NCBI GenBank assembly: GCA_944391225.1
Contig: CALXSS010000004.1
Span: 1 to 64,000 of the forward strand
Direction of reading: 5' to 3'
Length of the DNA stretch: 64,000 bases
Source: an uncultured Clostridia bacterium
GTDB lineage: Bacteria; Bacillota; Clostridia; UBA1381
This document shows, piece after piece, positions 18,975-30,902 of the stretch; positions within the stretch are counted from its first letter, which is position 1; each line of letters starts with the position of its first letter. A model generated the notes under the pieces. The model searched no databases. It was not told where the DNA came from and saw only the letters and a list, made by a program, of their open reading frames with translations. Made by a program: the position numbers and the translations under genes.

Positions 18975-19877
18975 ATGAAAATCAAAAAAATACTGACGGC
19001 TGTGTTTGCCGGAGCGTTAATGGCAGGTGTATGCTCATGCGGAGGAACGAATGTGGAAACACAGAAAGGCGACGCGTCGAAGCAGGCTATACTTGTTGTC
19101 AGCTTCGGTACCAGCTACAGCGAAACAAGGGAAGCTACTATAGGTGCAGTTGAAAAAGAGATCAGCGCATCATTCCCGGATCATGATGTAAGAAGAGCTT
19201 TTACAAGCCAGACAATTATCGACAAGCTCAAGGAACGAGACGGACTTGAGATAGATAATGTTACAGAGGCTATGGACAGACTTGTCAGCGATGGAGTGGG
19301 GACTCTCATAGTACAGCCTACACACGTTATGAACGGAATAGAGTACGATGAGATGGTCAGTATGATAGAGCCTTACAAAGACAGGTTTGAGAGTATTTCA
19401 TATGGAGCGCCTATGCTTTCATCTGATGATGATTATGATAAGGTGGTAGATGTGATAGCTGAGGAGATACCTCAGTTAAGCGAGCCGGATACAGCTGTGG
19501 TGCTTGTAGGGCACGGCAGCGAGCATTTTGCAAACGCGGCATATGCGGCGCTGTCATATCGTTTCCATTCAAAGGGATATGAGAATTGCTTTGTAGGCAC
19601 AGTCGAGGCATTTCCTGATATTGAGGATATCAAGGCGAGAGTAAAGGAAAGCGGCGCTGAAAAGGTAGTCCTTCTTCCGTTCATGATAGTTGCCGGAGAC
19701 CATGCCACAAACGACATATGCGGTGAGGAAGAAGGAACATGGTATACAGAGTTCAAAAACGAGGGCTACGAGGTGACAGCGATAAAAAAGGGACTTGGCG
19801 AATATGCCGGATTGCGTTCGCTGTTTATAGATCATATAAATGATGTCATAGCCGATGGGGAGGATAATAACGAATGA
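18975..19877 (+). CDS. cbiK: Sirohydrochlorin cobaltochelatase, predicted exported lipoprotein
   Basis: 300 residues. The chelatase part has ILVVSFGTSYSETREATI, the metal-site His motifs PTHVMNGIEYDEM and VAGDHATNDICGEE, and VLVGHGSEHFANAAY, as in CbiK. It inserts Co2+ into sirohydrochlorin, the entry step of the anaerobic route. The N-terminus is a signal peptide (KIKK then about 15 hydrophobic residues) ending in AGVCSCGGT, a lipobox-like Cys site. Export is odd for a cytoplasmic intermediate, though a periplasmic CbiK is known in Desulfovibrio. The ATG at 18975 follows GGAGG; a longer start at 18906 is not supported. It overlaps the next gene by four bases. Confidence 0.9.
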   Translation: MKIKKILTAVFAGALMAGVCSCGGTNVETQKGDASKQAILVVSFGTSYSETREATIGAVEKEISASFPDHDVRRAFTSQTIIDKLKERDGLEIDNVTEAMDRLVSDGVGTLIVQPTHVMNGIEYDEMVSMIEPYKDRFESISYGAPMLSSDDDYDKVVDVIAEEIPQLSEPDTAVVLVGHGSEHFANAAYAALSYRFHSKGYENCFVGTVEAFPDIEDIKARVKESGAEKVVLLPFMIVAGDHATNDICGEEEGTWYTEFKNEGYEVTAIKKGLGEYAGLRSLFIDHINDVIADGEDNNE

Positions 19878-21304
19878 ATAAGCTGAAAAGATCTATAATG
19901 GTGGTTTTTGCAGCTGCCATATTTGTGACGGCAGTGTCATCATGCTCTGAAAAAACAGAGGAGCAGACAGCGTCAAATGCCGCAATATCGTTTACAGATG
20001 ATGACGGAGAGCTCATAGAGCTTGACGCACCTGCAGAGCGTATAATCTCGATGTATTCCGCGCACACAGAAAACCTGTATTATCTTGGCGCGGATGATAA
20101 GATGATAGGAGGCTACAAGACCTGTGTTTATCCGCCTGAGGCGGCATTCCTTGATATGTATGACTACAATTCCGATCCGGAAAAGGTGATAGCAGCCGAT
20201 CCGGATGTGGTCATAATAAGACCGTTCATCAGCAGAAATTCACCTGATTTTGTGGACGCTCTCAAAAAAGCCGGGATCTGTGTCGTATCGCTTTATCCGG
20301 ACAGCTTTGATGAATTTGACGATTACATATACAAGCTTGCAAAAGTGAGCGGCACTGAGGAAAATGCCGGAAAGCTGCTTGATGAGTTCCATAGCGAGCT
20401 TGATTCAATATCATCGCTGACTGCCGCGGCAGAGGACAAGCCGACAGTATTTTTTGAATCTATGGAAACGAATATAAGAACAGTGACTGATGATTCTATG
20501 GCAGGCAGATGTATTTCTCTTGCCGGAGGAGTAAACATTGCTGCGGATTCCGAGTCCTCGGGCGAGGGTATAACAATAGCGGATTTCGGAACGGAAAAGG
20601 TGCTTGAAAACGCTGATAATATCGATGTGTACATATCACAGCACGGAGCTATGAACACCGGCGGCAGCGTGGAGGCAATAGCGGAACGGCCGGGGTTTGA
20701 TACTGTAAAGGCAGTAAAAGAGGGCAGAGTATATATAATCGATGAAAAGCTCGTTTCATCTCCGTCTTTCCGGTATGCCAAGGGAGTAAGGGAGATGGCA
20801 AGATATATTTATCCTGAGTTTATGGACGATTATTCAGAGCTTGCAAATGATGAGGCGGCAACGCGCAGCACGCTCGCACGGCTGATAGTTATGCACCGGC
20901 ATCTTCCGATATATATACCGACCTCGGCATCATATTACAGCAGCGAGCACGAGGGACATACATTCGGAATGTTCAAGGATGTATCATGGCGCGATGATGA
21001 TTTTGACTATATCGAAACCACAGTTAATGAGGGCGCTGTAGCCTGGTATGAGGAAGATGATGGAGAGTATTTCTATCCTGAAAACAGGGTGACGCGCGAG
21101 GAGCTTGCAAAGGCGGTGTTTGTTCTTGGTGATTACAAGGCAAACGGCGCAGGCACTGCAATAAGCGATATAGATAAATGCGCAGACAGCCAGATGATCC
21201 AGACCATGGTGGATAACGGCGTGTTTGAATTGAATAACGGAGCGTTTGAGCCTGAGAGAGAGGTAACGAACAATGAGATAATAGCAGCACTCAGCACGCT
21301 GTGA
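19874..21304 (+). CDS. BtuF-like substrate-binding lipoprotein with C-terminal SLH modules
   Basis: 476 residues. A lipoprotein signal ends in AVSSC at about residue 24. Residues 35-325 are a periplasmic-binding-protein domain of the BtuF/FecB class: PAERIISMYSAHTENLYYLGA, DPDVVIIRPF and VSSPSFRYAKGVREMARYIYP. From residue 366 two S-layer-homology-like repeats follow: MFKDVSWRDD...FYPENRVTREELAKAV and ISDIDKCADS...FEPEREVTNNEIIAAL. Such a tail would tie the importer's binding protein to the cell wall as well as to the membrane. It completes the permease/ATPase pair upstream and sits between cbiK and cbiD. Confidence 0.88.
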   Translation: MNKLKRSIMVVFAAAIFVTAVSSCSEKTEEQTASNAAISFTDDDGELIELDAPAERIISMYSAHTENLYYLGADDKMIGGYKTCVYPPEAAFLDMYDYNSDPEKVIAADPDVVIIRPFISRNSPDFVDALKKAGICVVSLYPDSFDEFDDYIYKLAKVSGTEENAGKLLDEFHSELDSISSLTAAAEDKPTVFFESMETNIRTVTDDSMAGRCISLAGGVNIAADSESSGEGITIADFGTEKVLENADNIDVYISQHGAMNTGGSVEAIAERPGFDTVKAVKEGRVYIIDEKLVSSPSFRYAKGVREMARYIYPEFMDDYSELANDEAATRSTLARLIVMHRHLPIYIPTSASYYSSEHEGHTFGMFKDVSWRDDDFDYIETTVNEGAVAWYEEDDGEYFYPENRVTREELAKAVFVLGDYKANGAGTAISDIDKCADSQMIQTMVDNGVFELNNGAFEPEREVTNNEIIAALSTL

Positions 21305-22427: not shown

Positions 22428-23623
22428 GGATTTATCTTATAGGGACAGGAATGGGCGGAAGAAAAACTCTTACCGCGGAGGCTGAAAGGGCGTGCAGAGA
22501 GGCTGAGGTGCTTATCGGAGCGGAGCGGATGGTCAATGATCTCAGTGATCTTAACAAGCCTGTTTTTATATCCTACAGGTATGATGAGATACGCGGCTTT
22601 GCTGATTCGCATGCGCAATACAGCTGCGCCGCCGTGCTGCTGTCGGGAGATATATCTTTTTACAGCGCGGCAGGAAAGCTCCGCGAAAAGCTGAAAGGAC
22701 ATGAGGTCGTGCCGATAGCCGGAATATCTTCATTGTCGTATATGTGCGCAAAACTGGGTATTGATTTGAACGATACAGAGGCGGTAAGCCTGCACGGAAA
22801 GAAAAACAGCTATATATGCAGAGTAAGGGACAGAAAATATACATTTCTGCTTTTAAACGATGGTGGAGATATTGAAAAAATATCCGAGCAGCTGCGCTGC
22901 TTTGATATTGATTGTATCATTCATGCCGGGTCAAGGTTAGGCTATGAAGATGAGAGGATAATTTCATTCAGACCGGGAGAGAGTATCGCTCAGCTTGGCT
23001 CGCCTGTATGCGCAGTTATAGAGAATCTGTCGTGTGCCGACTTGACCGGCAGGCATATACCTGATAGTGAGTTTATACGCGGCGGTGTGCCTATGACAAA
23101 ATCAGCTGTCAGGGCTGTGAGCATTGCAAGGCTGGAGCTTGGCAGAGAAAGCGTTGTTTATGATATAGGCGCAGGCACGGGCTCGGTGTCGATAGAGGCG
23201 TCGCTGCGTTCACACGATATAAGGGTATACGCAGTTGAACGCGAGATAGAGGCTATTGAGCTGATAAATAAAAATATATTAAAATTCAGAGCCGACAATA
23301 TAGAGATCGTCGCCGGCGAGGCTCCGCAGGCGTTGGAATGTCTGCCCCCTCCCACCCACGTGTTTATAGGCGGCAGCGGCAGAAAAGCGTTTGATATAAT
23401 AGACGCTGTTATAAAAAAGAACCCAAAGGCAAGGATCGTGATGAATGCTGTTACTCTCAATACATGCTCTGAGGTGCTCGCGGTGGTAAAAAGGCTTGGT
23501 CTGAGTCTTGAAACGGTGTGCGTAAATGCGGCTGAGTCAAAAAAAGCAGGAGAAAGTCTGCTTATGATGGCACAGAACCCGGTGTATATTTTCACGATGG
23601 AGGCAAAAGGGAATGATAAATAA
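22424..23623 (+). CDS. cbiET: Fused cobalt-precorrin-7 C5-methyltransferase / C15-methyltransferase (decarboxylating)
   Basis: 399 residues formed by two domains. The CbiE part (about 1-200) begins IYLIGTGMGGRKTLTAEA and contains VVPIAGISSLSYM. The CbiT part (about 215-395) has the SAM site VVYDIGAGTGSVSIEAS and PTHVFIGGSGRKAFDII. Together they methylate C5 and C15 and remove the acetate carboxyl at C12. The fusion is common (CobL has the same order). It overlaps cbiD by four bases and cbiA by eleven. Confidence 0.96.
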   Translation: MRIYLIGTGMGGRKTLTAEAERACREAEVLIGAERMVNDLSDLNKPVFISYRYDEIRGFADSHAQYSCAAVLLSGDISFYSAAGKLREKLKGHEVVPIAGISSLSYMCAKLGIDLNDTEAVSLHGKKNSYICRVRDRKYTFLLLNDGGDIEKISEQLRCFDIDCIIHAGSRLGYEDERIISFRPGESIAQLGSPVCAVIENLSCADLTGRHIPDSEFIRGGVPMTKSAVRAVSIARLELGRESVVYDIGAGTGSVSIEASLRSHDIRVYAVEREIEAIELINKNILKFRADNIEIVAGEAPQALECLPPPTHVFIGGSGRKAFDIIDAVIKKNPKARIVMNAVTLNTCSEVLAVVKRLGLSLETVCVNAAESKKAGESLLMMAQNPVYIFTMEAKGNDK

Positions 23624-24971
23624 CATACCGCGGATAATGATAGCGTCTGTTATGAGCGGCGGAGGAAAAACGACTGTGACAGCTGCTCTGCTGCGCGCCT
23701 TAAATAACAGAGGGCTGAGGACAGCAGCATACAAGTGCGGTCCTGATTATATTGATCCTATGTATCATAGAGCGGCATCCGGCAGGGACAGTATAAACCT
23801 TGATATGTATTTTTACGGCAGGGATAAACTGAGGGAGCTGTTTGCGGAAAGCAGCCAAAGCGCGGATATTGCCGTGGCGGAGGGTGTTATGGGGTTTTAT
23901 GACGGAATGAGCATGGAAAGCGAAAAAGCAAGCACATATGAAACGGCGTCAGCACTGGGCATGCCTGTTATACTCGTGCTGAACGCGCGCGGCATGGCTC
24001 ATACGGTTATCCCAATAATAAATGCTGTCAGTAAATATCGCGAGGACAGCGGGATAAAGGCTGTTATCCTTAATGATGTAACAGAGATGACATATAAAAT
24101 GCTGAAGCCTGTGATCGAGCGGGAAACTGGTGTTGCGGCAGTGGGATATATACCAAGGCTTACAGAGAATATAAAGAGCAGGCATTTAGGGCTCGTGCTG
24201 CCGTTTGAAAACGCTGAAACGGAAAATATCATAGCTCATATTTCGGAGACTATAGAAAAAACGGTAGATATAGATTCAGTTTTAGGAATAGCGGCAGACA
24301 CAAAGCCTATTGGATATTCTCACAGGAATACCGAAAAAAAGGACGGCGTTAAGATAGCTGTGGCATATGATAACGCATTTTGTTTTTATTACCGCGATAA
24401 TATGGATATACTGGAGCGGCTCGGCGCGGAGATAGTATTTTTCAGCCCTCTGAAAGACAGCTCTTTGCCTGAGGGCGCATGCGGACTGCTGCTCGGCGGC
24501 GGTTATCCTGAGCTGCACGCGGCAGAGCTGAGCGCCAATGCGGATATGCTCAGGGACATTAAAAATAAGCTCAGATCAGGCATGCCCACTCTTGCCGAAT
24601 GCGGAGGGTTCATGTATCTGCATGAAAGCATGGAGGGCGCGGACGGAAATGATCACAGGATGGCAGGCGTTATAGCCGCGCGGGCTTTCAGGACGGACAG
24701 GCTGGTGCGGTTCGGATATGCGGAGCTTACTGCAAATAGCGGCAGCCCGTATATGCAGGCGGGAGAAAAAATAAAGGGACATGAATTTCACTATTGGGAT
24801 AGCACCGATAACGGGAACAGCTGTACAGCGGCAAAGCCGTCAGGAAAGAGCAGCTGGAGCTGTATGTATGCAAAGGATAATATATTTGCAGGTTTTCCGC
24901 ATTTATGCTATGCGTCAAACACTGCCTTTGCGGAACGGTTTGTAGATAAATGCAGGGAGTATAAGGAATGA
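23613..24971 (+). CDS. cbiA: Cobyrinate a,c-diamide synthase
   Basis: 452 residues. The ATP-binding dethiobiotin-synthetase-like domain starts MIASVMSGGGKTTVTAALL, with CGPDYIDPMYH. The C-terminal glutamine amidotransferase domain contains GLLLGGGYPELHAAELSAN and the nucleophile Cys in AECGGFMYLHE. It amidates the a and c side chains using glutamine and ATP. Start overlaps cbiET. Confidence 0.96.
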   Translation: MINNIPRIMIASVMSGGGKTTVTAALLRALNNRGLRTAAYKCGPDYIDPMYHRAASGRDSINLDMYFYGRDKLRELFAESSQSADIAVAEGVMGFYDGMSMESEKASTYETASALGMPVILVLNARGMAHTVIPIINAVSKYREDSGIKAVILNDVTEMTYKMLKPVIERETGVAAVGYIPRLTENIKSRHLGLVLPFENAETENIIAHISETIEKTVDIDSVLGIAADTKPIGYSHRNTEKKDGVKIAVAYDNAFCFYYRDNMDILERLGAEIVFFSPLKDSSLPEGACGLLLGGGYPELHAAELSANADMLRDIKNKLRSGMPTLAECGGFMYLHESMEGADGNDHRMAGVIAARAFRTDRLVRFGYAELTANSGSPYMQAGEKIKGHEFHYWDSTDNGNSCTAAKPSGKSSWSCMYAKDNIFAGFPHLCYASNTAFAERFVDKCREYKE

Positions 24972-25489
24972 TAAGTGTTGTAACAGGCGGCAGCGGCAGC
25001 GGTAAATCGGAATATGCTGAAAAGCTTGCTGTAAAACAGGGAGGACGGCTCATATATATTGCTACAATGCAGCCGTTCGGCAGCGAGGCAAAGGAGCGCA
25101 TCTGCCGTCACAGGGAGATGCGCGGCGGCAGGGGCTTTGAAACCATTGAGGCATACACTGCCGCGCAGTGCGCGGCGGCGGAGGTGACGCCTGATTCTGT
25201 TGTGCTGCTTGAGTGTGTGTCAAATCTTGTGGCAAACGAGATGTTTTCAGTAGGAGGAGATCATGTGCGCAGTGTAAAGGAGTGCCTGACTGTTCTTTCT
25301 GAGCGGTGCTCTCAGCTAATAGCAGTTACAAATGAGATATTCTCTGACGGATTGATGTATGATGATGAAACGGTGAGGTATATTAAAGCAATGGCAGATA
25401 TAAACAGGTTTTTGTTTTCTGCTGCGGATTCGGTGACAGAGGTGGTCTATTCCATACCTATATCGTTAAAAGGAGGAGGTTTATATTGA
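24968..25489 (+). CDS. cobU: Adenosylcobinamide kinase / guanylyltransferase (variant C-terminus)
   Basis: 173 residues. The P-loop is SVVTGGSGSGKSEYAEKLA and the guanylylated His lies in ICRHREMRGGRGFETIEA, followed by VVLLECVSNLVANEM. These fit CobU. The usual end of the family (TNEVGMGIVP ... RDxxGxxNQ ... GLPxxLK) is replaced by TNEIFSDGLMYDDETVRYIKA and a short tail, so the C-terminus is divergent. A mini-CobU with the usual end is encoded at 26254-26583. The last codons overlap the TTG start of cobS. Confidence 0.9.
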   Translation: MISVVTGGSGSGKSEYAEKLAVKQGGRLIYIATMQPFGSEAKERICRHREMRGGRGFETIEAYTAAQCAAAEVTPDSVVLLECVSNLVANEMFSVGGDHVRSVKECLTVLSERCSQLIAVTNEIFSDGLMYDDETVRYIKAMADINRFLFSAADSVTEVVYSIPISLKGGGLY

Positions 25490-26238
25490 AGTCTTTGTTT
25501 GTGGCTCTTTCTATGTATTCAAGGATACCTGTGCCGCGCACTGTCTGGACGGAGTCGAGCATGAAATATGCTATGTGCTTTTTCCCTGTGGTCGGCGCGA
25601 TCATAGGCGCAGTCATATTTGCCGCCGGAATGCTTTTAAAGCCGCTCCGCGGCAGCCTTATTTTTTCTGCGGTCATGACTGTCATACCTGTGATCATAAC
25701 AGGAGGAATACATCTTGATGGATACCTTGATACCTCTGATGCGCTCTCATCATATGAAGGGACAGAAAAAAAGCTTGAGATATTAAAGGATCCCAATTCC
25801 GGCGCGTTTGCGGTCATCGCTGCTGCCGTGTATTTTACGCTGTCGCTCGGGGGCTGGAGTATAATATCGTCTGAGGATATTATCATGATCTCTTTATTTT
25901 ATTGCGTGTCAAGAGCGTTAAGCGGGATCTCAATCGTGAGCTTTCCGCTTGCGAAGAAAACAGGGCTTGCCGCTATGTTCTCTGGGGCGGCGCACAGATC
26001 AAGAGTAAGACTTGCGCTTGTTATGTGGCTGGCGGCATCAGCTGCCGCGGCAGTGATAATCAGCCCTGTGATGGCTCTGCTTGCGTCAGTTGCCGCCGCG
26101 GTATCGTTTGCGGTGTATTATGCGATAAGCATCAAAAATTTCGGCGGGATAACAGGCGATACTGCAGGCTGGTTTTTGCAGATATGCGAGCTTGCCGTAC
26201 TTCTGACTGTGGGCGCTGGAAGGATGATAATATTTTAA
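25486..26238 (+). CDS. cobS: Adenosylcobinamide-GDP ribazoletransferase (cobalamin synthase)
   Basis: 250 residues, integral membrane protein with six or so hydrophobic stretches. HLDGYLDTSDALSSYEG and KLEILKDPNSGAFAVIAAA are the active-site signatures of CobS. It joins adenosylcobinamide-GDP to alpha-ribazole at the membrane. The start is TTG, eight bases after AGGAGG and overlapping the cobU stop (TTGA), which implies translational coupling. Confidence 0.94.
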   Translation: MKSLFVALSMYSRIPVPRTVWTESSMKYAMCFFPVVGAIIGAVIFAAGMLLKPLRGSLIFSAVMTVIPVIITGGIHLDGYLDTSDALSSYEGTEKKLEILKDPNSGAFAVIAAAVYFTLSLGGWSIISSEDIIMISLFYCVSRALSGISIVSFPLAKKTGLAAMFSGAAHRSRVRLALVMWLAASAAAAVIISPVMALLASVAAAVSFAVYYAISIKNFGGITGDTAGWFLQICELAVLLTVGAGRMIIF

Positions 26239-26253
26239 GCAATGGAGGAGAAA

Positions 26254-26583
26254 ATGATACTGGTCGTTGGAGGGGCGTACCAGGGGAAAACGGAGTTTGT
26301 TAAGCAGACCCTTGGTATAGCGGAAAAAAATGCGATGTTCAATGCGCACAATATTATAAAGGCTTATATTGAGCGCGGCGAGGATCCGGAACAGATACTT
26401 GAGATCATAGAGAAAAACAATATAGCTGCTGTGACAGCGGATGAGATAGGTATGGGTATCGTGCCTCTGGACAAAAACGACAGGATATGGCGTGAGCGCA
26501 CAGGCAGGATAATATGCCGGATCGCCGCCATGGCGGACGAGGTATACAGGCTGTGTGCAGGGATACCTACGCGTATAAAATGA
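26254..26583 (+). CDS. Short CobU-like P-loop protein
   Basis: 109 residues, against about 170-180 for CobU. The N-terminus MILVVGGAYQGKTEFVKQ is a P-loop of the CobU type, and the C-terminus ADEIGMGIVPLDKNDRIWRE ... ADEVYRLCAGIPTRIK matches the conserved end of CobU well. The middle, including the His that carries GMP, is missing. It may bind nucleotide and assist or regulate the full-length CobU. The ATG at 26254 is preferred over 26242 because GGAGGAG lies between them. It follows cobS by 15 bases. Confidence 0.8.
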   Translation: MILVVGGAYQGKTEFVKQTLGIAEKNAMFNAHNIIKAYIERGEDPEQILEIIEKNNIAAVTADEIGMGIVPLDKNDRIWRERTGRIICRIAAMADEVYRLCAGIPTRIK

Positions 26584-26601: not shown

Positions 26602-27594
26602 GTGTTTATATTTATTTTAACGGCGGTGCTGCCTTTTATTATAGGATATTTGGCAGATCTTTTGATAGGAGATCCACAATGGCGGTACCACCCGATAAGA
26701 CTTATAGGCTCTATGATCGCCGCGTTTGAAAGGAGCATACGCCGCCGCTGCGATGATTCGGAGCGGAGCCTGAAAAAAGGCGGCGCGGCTCTTGTTATAG
26801 CTGTCTGCTTTTGCTCTGCTGCGGCAGCCGCTGCGGCTGTGTGCCTTGCGTATGCTATAAGCCCTGTGGTTTATATAATATCAGAGTCGGTCATATTTTA
26901 TTTCATGCTGTCGGCGCGCTCGCTCTGCACTGAGAGCATGAAGGTCTGTAAAGAGCTGAAGAAAGGAGATATAGAGGGCGCGAGAAAGGCAGTGTCCATG
27001 ATAGTAGGACGCGATACTGCTGCACTTGACAGCGCGGGTATTGCAAGAGCAGCGGTGGAAACTGTGGCTGAAAACGCGTCAGACGGCGTAACTGCGCCGA
27101 TGCTCTATATGCTCATCGGCGGTGCTCCGCTGTGTGTTCTCTATAAGGCAGTAAATACTATGGATTCAATGGTGGGTTACAAGAATGACAGGTATCTGTA
27201 TTTTGGCAGGGCAGCGGCAAGGCTTGACGATGCGGCAAACTTTTTGCCGGCAAGGATATCGGCGGCGTTTATGATAGTTGCGGCGTATATCACAGGCAAT
27301 GACGGCAGGAGAGCGGCGGAGATATACCGCCGCGACAGATATAAGCATGCAAGCCCAAACAGCGCGCATACTGAGGCGGTATGCGCCGGCGCGCTCGGAC
27401 TTCGTTTAGCAGGGGACGCATATTATTTCGGCAGGCTGTATAAAAAGGAGTATATAGGCGATGACATAAGAGGTATAGAGCCTGAGGATATCGTTCGCGC
27501 GAATAGGCTGATGCTTGTTATGTCGACGCTTTGCGCCGCGGCGGCGGTAATACTGCGCGGCGCAGCCGCCGCGGTGATCGGAGGGATATTATGA
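26602..27594 (+). CDS. cbiB: Adenosylcobinamide-phosphate synthase
   Basis: 330 residues, polytopic membrane protein. GDPQWRYHPIRLIGSMI near the N-terminus and NTMDSMVGYKNDRYLYFG, AARLDDAANFLPARISA are classic CbiB/CobD (Pseudomonas) motifs. It attaches aminopropanol (or its phosphate) to the f side chain of adenosylcobyric acid. The start is GTG, with AAGGAGAGG upstream. The gene overlaps cobD by four bases. Confidence 0.95.
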   Translation: MFIFILTAVLPFIIGYLADLLIGDPQWRYHPIRLIGSMIAAFERSIRRRCDDSERSLKKGGAALVIAVCFCSAAAAAAAVCLAYAISPVVYIISESVIFYFMLSARSLCTESMKVCKELKKGDIEGARKAVSMIVGRDTAALDSAGIARAAVETVAENASDGVTAPMLYMLIGGAPLCVLYKAVNTMDSMVGYKNDRYLYFGRAAARLDDAANFLPARISAAFMIVAAYITGNDGRRAAEIYRRDRYKHASPNSAHTEAVCAGALGLRLAGDAYYFGRLYKKEYIGDDIRGIEPEDIVRANRLMLVMSTLCAAAAVILRGAAAAVIGGIL

Positions 27595-28644: not shown

Positions 28645-30147
28645 ATGGCAAGAGCGATAATGATACAGGGAACAATGTCCGGCGCGGGTAAAAGCCTGAT
28701 AGCCGCTGCGCTTTGCAGGATATTTACACAGGACGGCTTTAAGGCAGCCCCGTTCAAGTCACAGAATATGGCTCTCAATTCATATGTGACAGCCGATGGT
28801 CTGGAGATGGGCAGAGCGCAGGTCATGCAGGCGGAGGCGGCTATGCGGGAGCCTGACATCAGGATGAACCCTATACTGTTAAAGCCTACAAGCGATGTCG
28901 GCTCGCAGGTCATATTGAACGGCAGACCTATAGGCAATATGCGCGCAAAGGAATACTTTGCGCGAAAAAAGGAGTTTATCCCTGACATAATGAAAGCGTA
29001 TGATTCGCTTGCGGAGGAAAACGATATAATAGTTATAGAGGGCGCGGGAAGTCCGGCTGAAATAAATCTTAAAAAGAACGATATAGTCAATATGGGCATG
29101 GCGCGTCTTGCAAAGACGCCTGTTCTGCTTGTGGGAGATATTGACCGCGGCGGAGTGTTTGCCCAGCTATATGGAACAACTGAGCTGCTTGAGAGAGCTG
29201 AAAAGGAAATGATAAAGGGACTTATAATAAACAAATTCCGCGGAGATGTGTCTATACTTCAGAGCGGGCTTGACACTATAAGCTCTCTTACAGGCAAGCG
29301 GGTGCTCGGAGTTGTGCCGTATACGAATGCAGATATAGATGACGAGGATTCTCTGTCGGAAAGGATAAGCAGAATAAGCAGAGGGAACGGAGCAGACGTC
29401 GCGGTAATAAGGCTGCCGCACATATCGAATTTTACTGATTTTACGCCGTTTGAATGCGCGGAGGGCGTATCTCTGCGCTATGTAAGATCAGCTCACGAGC
29501 TTGGCTCGCCGGATCTTATAATAATACCGGGCACAAAGAATACAATAGGTGATCTTTTGTGGCTGCGCGAGACCGGACTTGAGGCTTTAATATGCCGTAA
29601 CGCAGAAAGCGGCTGCGCGGTCATAGGAATATGCGGCGGTTATCAGATGCTTGGCAGATATGTCCGCGACCCGTACGGCAGCGAGACGGGCGGCGAGGTG
29701 CGCGGAATAGGTCTGCTTGACACTGCTACAGTATTTTCGCAGGAAAAAACAACAAGGAGAGTCAGCGGTATTATAACCGGAGCGCAGGGAATGTTCAAGG
29801 TGCTTAACGGCATAGAGCTCAAGGGCTATGAAATACATATGGGCAGAACAGAAACAGACGGCGAGCCGTTTTCAGAGCTGCTCGGAGATAACGGTGAGAA
29901 AAGCTTTGACGGAGCGGCAAGGGGTAATATCTGGGGAACGTATGTACACGGTATTTTTGATACGGCAGAAATAACGGCGCGCATTGCGGAGGCGCTTGCA
30001 AAGCGGCGTGGTATAGATATAGGATCGGTGCGCGCGTTCGATATGGATACATACAAACAAAAGCAGTATGATATTCTTGCAGATGCGGTGCGCGGCGGAC
30101 TGGATATGGAGGCTGTATATAAAATAGTGGAGGAGGGGCTGAAATGA
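28645..30147 (+). CDS. cbiP: Adenosylcobyric acid synthase (glutamine-hydrolysing)
   Basis: 500 residues. [20 protein letters not shown] and [23 protein letters not shown] (P-loop synthetase domain), [13 protein letters not shown], and the amidotransferase Cys in [10 protein letters not shown] are CbiP/CobQ hallmarks; GTYVHGIFD carries the amidotransferase His. It amidates the b, d, e and g carboxylates. The ATG at 28645 follows GGAGATAG; 28612 lies inside cobD. Confidence 0.96.
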
Positions 30148-30902
30148 TAAGGAGGATCAGTACAGCTGCCATAATTATCGGCGTTCTGTTTCTGATATAC
30201 GGCGCCGCAGTCACAGCCCTTTACGGCGCAGGAACGCCTATGCTGTGGGCGTGGTATGCTGTCGGCGCAGTGCTGACAGCAAACGGGATAACAGGCTTGC
30301 GTTCATCAAAGCGCGGCATCGCGGTAACGAGCCTGGTCATAAACATAGCCGCGGCAGTTTTTCTGTCAGGCGGAGCAGTGTTTTCACTTCTGGCTCTGTC
30401 TGAGCTGGAGAAAGAGCCTGAGCCCGGCTGTGAATATGTGATCATACTTGGCGCGGCAGTGAATGGAGATGCTCCGTCTGAGGCGCTACAAAAGCGGATA
30501 GACGCGGCGTATACATATCTTTGTGAAAATAAAAACTCTGTTGCTGTGGGAACGGGCGGCAGGGGAGATGGTGAGGATATAAGCGAGGGCAGCTGTATTG
30601 CTGCCGGGCTTGAAAAGCTTGGTATTGACAGCAGCAGGATAATATTTGAAGATACCTCAACAACGACTGTTGAGAATTTTGACAACGCGCTTGAGCTTAT
30701 GGGAAATGCTGAAAGCATAGCTGTTGTGAGCAGCGGCTTTCATGTGTTCAGGGCAAGGCTGCTGCTCTCATGCAGAACAGATGCGCGAATAAGCGTTATC
30801 CCGGCATCCGGAACCGATATACTTACTCCGCATTATATGCTGCGTGAATACACAGTGTTTTTAGTGGATATAATTTTAGGTAACTACAGGCGCGCATATT
30901 GA
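30144..30902 (+). CDS. YdcF/SanA-like DUF218 membrane protein
   Basis: 252 residues. Three hydrophobic segments in the first 95 residues are followed by a DUF218 domain: [53 protein letters not shown] and [11 protein letters not shown]. The family is linked to envelope functions but its reaction is not known. Its position inside the B12 operon, overlapping cbiP by four bases, suggests an envelope or intermediate-handling role in corrinoid metabolism (inference). It is absent from textbook B12 operons. Confidence 0.85.

What the first reader, a model, noticed from the sequence alone, without database searches (positions are those of the whole stretch)
24968..26583. Complementary CobU pair around cobS: one lacks the usual C-terminus, the other is little more than it
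The 173-residue CobU has the kinase P-loop and guanylylation His but a non-standard C-terminus. The 109-residue protein 15 bases after cobS has a P-loop and the canonical C-terminal GMGIVP...IPTRIK but no guanylylation His. The two may form a mixed oligomer sharing active sites, or the mini-CobU may be a nucleotide-sensing regulator. I do not know a description of this arrangement.
Basis: partly seen in the sequence, partly recalled or inferred. Interest (0 to 1): 0.6.

Follow-up and report, generated by a model that had tools for sequence, protein, structure and literature searches.

The report
Two-gene split CobU, vitamin B12 assembly
In many gut-type Firmicutes the B12-assembly enzyme CobU is replaced by two related genes, one keeping the catalytic half of the signature residues and a mini one keeping the other half, and because they occur together, are sometimes fused and co-vary, they probably form one two-part enzyme that does not seem to have been described.

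Summary
The window carries a 173-aa CobU (alpha, 24968-25489), cobS, then a 109-aa mini-CobU (beta, 26254-26583). Among 393 genomes of the window's class, 57 have both, 2 alpha only, 1 beta only (alpha lost at a contig end) and 112 a single canonical CobU with no beta (Fisher 5e-42). All 13 beta-bearing genomes found outside the class also have a non-canonical CobU.

The canonical signature residues are partitioned. Alpha keeps Walker A Ser, the guanylylation His, Arg52, Walker B and Asn90, but 0 of 80 alphas have G-x-[IV]-P...R...[DE]..GR. Beta keeps that motif's GxVP core in 76 of 76 but has no His, no Walker B, and Ser/Thr after GK in only 20 of 76. Beta models as half of CobU (Z about 12). 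Alpha and beta are fused in five species, and beta distances follow alpha, not CobS. Beta is under purifying selection.

Most likely they are subunits of a heteromeric CobU, beta being a non-catalytic paralogue; a composite active site is inferred, not shown. Lone alphas with intact B12 operons show beta is dispensable in one subclade. No published description was found in the library searched.

The parts
24968..25489 (+). alpha: CobU-type protein, 173 aa, with Walker A GGSGSGKS, His48, Walker B region VVLLE, but without the GMGIVP...R...D..GR signature
   Evidence: PF02283 5.5e-32; conserved columns; model pLDDT 91.5, Z 20.5 to 1c9k
24986..25009 (+). alpha Walker A loop, residues 7-14 GGSGSGKS
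   Evidence: GK-S in 80 of 80 alphas
25109..25111 (+). alpha His48, aligned with the guanylylated His of Salmonella CobU (His46, from memory)
   Evidence: invariant in alphas, 0.00 in betas
25331..25360 (+). alpha-specific motif NEIFSDGLMY in place of NEVGMGIVPE
25486..26238 (+). cobS (adenosylcobinamide-GDP ribazoletransferase), TTG start overlapping the alpha stop
   Evidence: PF02654 2.5e-48
26254..26583 (+). beta: mini-CobU, 109 aa (alternative upstream ATG at 26242)
   Evidence: PF02283 5.4e-13; model pLDDT 91.6, Z about 12 to CobU structures
26269..26292 (+). beta P-loop-like GGAYQGKT
   Evidence: GG..xGK kept, Ser/Thr after it in 20 of 76 betas
26443..26508 (+). beta signature EIGMGIVPLDKNDRIWRERTGR
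   Evidence: G, P, R, G invariant in 45 betas; G[ILVM][ILVM]P in 76 of 76
23613..24971 (+). cbiA, directly upstream in the same operon
   Evidence: ORF and operon position
26602..27594 (+). cbiB, directly downstream in the same operon
   Evidence: ORF and operon position

Best explanation
[quoted passage not shown] Alpha carries the chemistry: Walker A with Ser, Walker B, and the His that takes GMP. Beta is a non-catalytic, shrunken CobU paralogue that keeps strand 1 with its loop, strands 5-7, and the G-x-G-[IV]-V-P...R...[DE]-x-x-G-R element that alpha has lost, and supplies this element at the alpha-beta interface so that the pair reconstitutes what a canonical homo-oligomer does with one chain. 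Shown by sequence: the pair, its conservation, the complementary residue loss, the fusions, the co-variation, and that beta lacks catalytic residues. Inferred: the physical complex, its stoichiometry, and that the beta element reaches into alpha's active site or shapes corrinoid/nucleotide binding there.
For: Near-perfect co-occurrence in 393 genomes: 57 both, 2 alpha only, 1 beta only, 112 canonical without beta (Fisher p 5e-42); 13 of 13 beta genomes outside the class also have a non-canonical CobU. Signature residues divide cleanly: alpha vs beta occupancy Ser14 1.00/0.24, His48 1.00/0.00, Arg52 1.00/0.07, Asn90 1.00/0.08, against Gly142 0.08/1.00, Pro145 0.01/1.00, Arg151 0.18/0.97, Asp155 0.15/1.00, Arg159 0.28/0.92. 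Five species have alpha and beta in one ORF of 317-350 aa. Two genomes have beta straight after alpha without cobS between. Beta distances follow alpha given CobS (partial r 0.41, 0 of 500 permutations) but not CobS given alpha (0.05, 103 of 500). Both fold confidently as CobU.
Against: G035 and G177 have an intact late B12 operon with a lone alpha and no beta; a third lone alpha lies beside cobS in G725. Their alphas form one subclade with further changes (GEN/GAN-SSGKS type P-loops), so beta can be dispensed with there. The beta element sits at the end of strand 5, next to beta's own P-loop, so it may serve beta's own pocket rather than alpha's site. Beta is also fused to a CobD-type decarboxylase (L035) and to a CobC-type phosphatase (L074), so fusion is not exclusive to alpha.
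Confidence: 0.7

Rival explanations
1. Beta is a regulatory subunit or sensor: it binds a nucleotide or corrinoid in its own retained pocket and switches alpha on or off, without giving residues to alpha's active site (compare HisZ and HisG-S).
For: Beta keeps a coherent pocket of its own: GG..xGK, the GxGIVP loop and R..R(D/E)..GR. It folds as a stable half sheet. All co-occurrence evidence fits this equally well.
Against: Alpha has lost exactly the residues beta keeps, which a pure regulator would not require. Beta lacks Walker B and mostly the Walker A Ser/Thr, so hydrolysis-based sensing is unlikely.
Confidence: 0.2
2. Beta is a partner of CobS: it docks the soluble CobU to the membrane enzyme CobS and hands on AdoCbi-GDP.
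For: Beta follows cobS in nearly all loci, even where alpha has moved away, as in G271 and G286.
Against: Beta distances do not follow CobS once alpha is accounted for. In five genomes beta is fused to alpha, and in two it follows alpha without cobS between. Canonical loci have cobS but their genomes never have beta.
Confidence: 0.06
3. Beta is a decaying remnant of a duplicated cobU and alpha alone is a fully working CobU.
For: Lone alphas with intact operons exist.
Against: Beta dN/dS 0.06-0.34, similar to alpha and CobS; invariant motif in 76 of 76; no internal stop in any listed copy.
Confidence: 0.04

Closest known systems
Canonical CobU / CobP (PF02283; PDB 1CBU, 1C9K, 7TM8, 8YEP, 9VIO)
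   Same: Fold (alpha Z about 19-22, beta Z about 12), operon position beside cobS, and all signature residues if alpha and beta are added together
   Different: Canonical CobU is one chain carrying all signature residues; here they are divided over two genes, and neither protein reaches the NCBIfam equivalog cut-off (97 and 56 bits against 161)
HisG-S / HisZ ATP phosphoribosyltransferase (PMC10795190)
   Same: Logic only: a catalytic subunit paired with a separate non-catalytic regulatory subunit in one biosynthetic enzyme
   Different: Unrelated fold and reaction; HisZ is an allosteric activator, whereas beta keeps the very residues alpha has lost
RecA-fold heteromers such as Elongator Elp456 and F1-ATPase alpha/beta
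   Same: Alpha's next best structural neighbours after CobU include RecA-like ring ATPases, some of which pair non-identical subunits (from general knowledge)
   Different: No evidence here for a ring or an arginine finger; only the fold class is shared
CobY
   Same: Does the guanylyltransferase step of CobU (PMC4626045)
   Different: Non-homologous single protein, typical of archaea; alpha and beta are both CobU homologues

Membership tests
CobU (PF02283), applied to alpha | Whole-length match to the family profile | tested here: met
   111 bits against cut-off 27, profile 2-167 of 168; below the NCBIfam equivalog cut-off of 161 bits (97.5)
CobU (PF02283), applied to alpha | Walker A GxxxxGK[ST] and guanylylation His | tested here: met
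   GK-S in 80 of 80; His48 invariant
CobU (PF02283), applied to alpha | C-terminal signature G-x-G-[IV]-[IV]-P ... R ... D ... GR | tested here: not met
   0 of 80 with the motif; Pro145 0.01, Gly142 0.08
CobU (PF02283), applied to beta | Match to the family profile | tested here: met
   49 bits, but only profile 105-168
CobU (PF02283), applied to beta | Guanylylation His and Walker B | tested here: not met
   His 0.00; the segment holding strands 2-4 is absent
CobU (PF02283), applied to beta | C-terminal signature | tested here: met
   GxVP core in 76 of 76; Gly142 and Pro145 1.00, Arg151 0.97
CobU enzyme | AdoCbi kinase and AdoCbi-P guanylyltransferase activity | not testable with these tools
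   needs purified proteins
CobU enzyme | Homotrimer (Salmonella enzyme, from memory) | not testable with these tools
   no complex prediction available

The most novel reading that the evidence does not exclude
An ancient split of CobU, kept across a large part of Bacillota, in which a canonical homo-oligomeric enzyme became an obligate alpha-beta heteromer by complementary loss of residues, so that the active site is built from a catalytic CobU and a catalytically dead half-CobU.
Probability: 0.5. Interest if true: 0.7.

Novelty: new variant of a known kind. Interest (0 to 1): 0.6.

Why it matters
CobU makes AdoCbi-GDP, a late step that every CobU-dependent cobamide producer needs. If it is a two-subunit enzyme in about a third of the CobU-bearing genomes sampled in this class, B12-pathway annotation in gut bacteria counts one enzyme as two or misses the mini gene, heterologous expression of the larger gene alone may fail, and the natural split shows which CobU residues can act in trans.

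Tried and rejected
Genome artefact or frameshift: rejected, as the arrangement recurs in dozens of genomes with no stops inside. Pseudogene: rejected by dN/dS. Beta as CobS partner: disfavoured by partial distance correlation. Hits near 20 bits in 350-400-aa frames in the family search lie below the curated cut-off and were ignored as probably other P-loop proteins. PHMMER hits of alpha to TAL effectors have no domain passing on its own and are spurious. Literature searches for a second, split or paralogous cobU found no description; the library is open access only. Surveys of two other phyla could not be run (a centre must be a genome handle).

Full report
Observation. The window holds a cobalamin operon. 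Between cbiA (23613-24971) and cbiB (26602-27594) lie a 173-aa CobU (called alpha here, 24968-25489), cobS (25486-26238) and a 109-aa mini-CobU (beta, 26254-26583). Both match Pfam CobU above cut-off: alpha over the whole profile, beta only over profile 105-168. Both fall below the NCBIfam equivalog cut-off. No other CobU is in this assembly.

Conservation. In the window's family the two matches recur about 1 kb apart in most genomes with an alpha-type CobU. Over 393 genomes of the class, at least 90% complete apart from the window's own, a profile of betas (A1) and a profile of alphas (A2) each separate sharply from canonical CobU: betas score 78 bits or more and, apart from one partial match (G388), over their whole length, against at most 70 bits for canonical C-termini; alphas score 160 bits or more against at most 127 for canonical ones. 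G277 and G423 score lower as alphas but were added by inspection. Counting: 57 genomes with both, 2 alpha only (G035, G177), 1 beta only (G248, whose contig begins inside cobS), 112 with a single canonical or canonical-like type of CobU and no beta. Fisher p is 5e-42; this ignores shared ancestry, so it measures strength and is not an independent-trial probability. Outside the class, 13 genomes carrying beta were found in a phylum sample, and all 13 have a non-canonical CobU too, including three deep ones (G597, G620, G684) whose larger protein scores like a canonical CobU against the alpha profile yet lacks the GIVP motif.

Partition of residues. In a joint alignment of 44 canonical, 78 alpha and 76 beta sequences, the strongly conserved canonical columns fall into three groups. 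Kept by alpha only: Ser14 after GK, Tyr30-Ala32, His48, Arg52, the acidic residue at 82 and Asn90. Kept by beta only: Gly140, Gly142, Pro145, Arg151, Asp/Glu155 and Arg159. Kept by both: Gly7, Gly8, Gly12, Lys13, Val171 and Lys183, with Gly177 nearly so. By pattern, GK-S occurs in 80 of 80 alphas, Ser/Thr after GK in 20 of 76 betas, G[ILVM][ILVM]P in 76 of 76 betas, and that motif followed by the Arg in 0 of 80 alphas. Alpha's replacement, FSDG-x-x-Y-x-x-x-T-x-x-Y, is conserved in its own right.

Structure. AlphaFold models from shallow alignments are confident: alpha pLDDT 91.5, beta 91.6. Alpha matches solved CobU at Z about 19-22 and then type II thymidine kinase and RecA-like ring ATPases; beta matches CobU over all 109 residues at Z about 12, well above the next rows. 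Beta keeps strands 1, 5, 6 and 7 and lacks strands 2-4. From general knowledge of RecA-like sheets the kept strands would lie side by side, making beta one coherent half of the sheet; this was not measured.

Links between the two. Five species of one genus encode alpha and beta in one ORF of 317-350 aa; a sixth species of that genus has them apart. In G665 and G725 beta follows alpha directly. Beta distances correlate with alpha given CobS (partial r 0.41, 0 of 500 permutations), not with CobS given alpha (0.05, 103 of 500). Beta dN/dS in close pairs is 0.06-0.34, like alpha and CobS. Alphas and canonical CobUs separate on one branch of a maximum-likelihood tree (support 99/97), compatible with one origin of alpha.

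Exceptions. G035 and G177 keep cbiB, cobD, cbiP, cobA, cobT, alpha, cobS and a CobC-type phosphatase but no beta. With a second alpha of G725 they form one subclade that has also altered GGS to GEN or GAN and the NE-FSDG region. So beta is dispensable in at least one lineage, by an unknown compensation. Fusions of beta to a CobD-type decarboxylase (L035) and to a CobC-type phosphatase (L074) exist.

Interpretation. The simplest account is a heteromeric CobU: a catalytic alpha and a non-catalytic beta that supplies the element alpha has lost. Physical association and a composite active site are inferred. A regulatory beta is the main rival. Literature searches in the open-access library gave no description of this pair. 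I file it as a new variant of a known kind.

Noticed in passing
L142 8064-8591, L143 6539-7078, L153 (second alpha of G725): A subclade of alphas without beta in otherwise intact cobalamin operons, with GEN/GAN-SSGKS type P-loops; possibly beta-independent or with another partner.
   Followed up: partly
L035 2995-3411 and onward: Beta fused to the N-terminus of a CobD-type decarboxylase in one 571-aa frame, in Candidatus Copromonas faecavium.
   Followed up: no
L074 (G363:C23), 339-aa frame on the minus strand: Beta fused to a histidine-phosphatase (CobC-like) domain.
   Followed up: no
L145/L158 (G665), L153/L159 (G725): Genomes with two alpha-type CobUs: in G665 two alpha-beta pairs, one with beta straight after alpha; in G725 one pair plus a lone alpha.
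   Followed up: partly
window 19874-21304: Iron/cobalamin-type ABC substrate-binding protein whose C-terminal third looks like S-layer-homology repeats, just upstream of cbiD (by eye, no family search).
   Followed up: no
window 30144-30902: A membrane protein with a DUF218/YdcF-like part inserted between cbiP and the cobA adenosyltransferase gene of the B12 operon (by eye, no family search).
   Followed up: no
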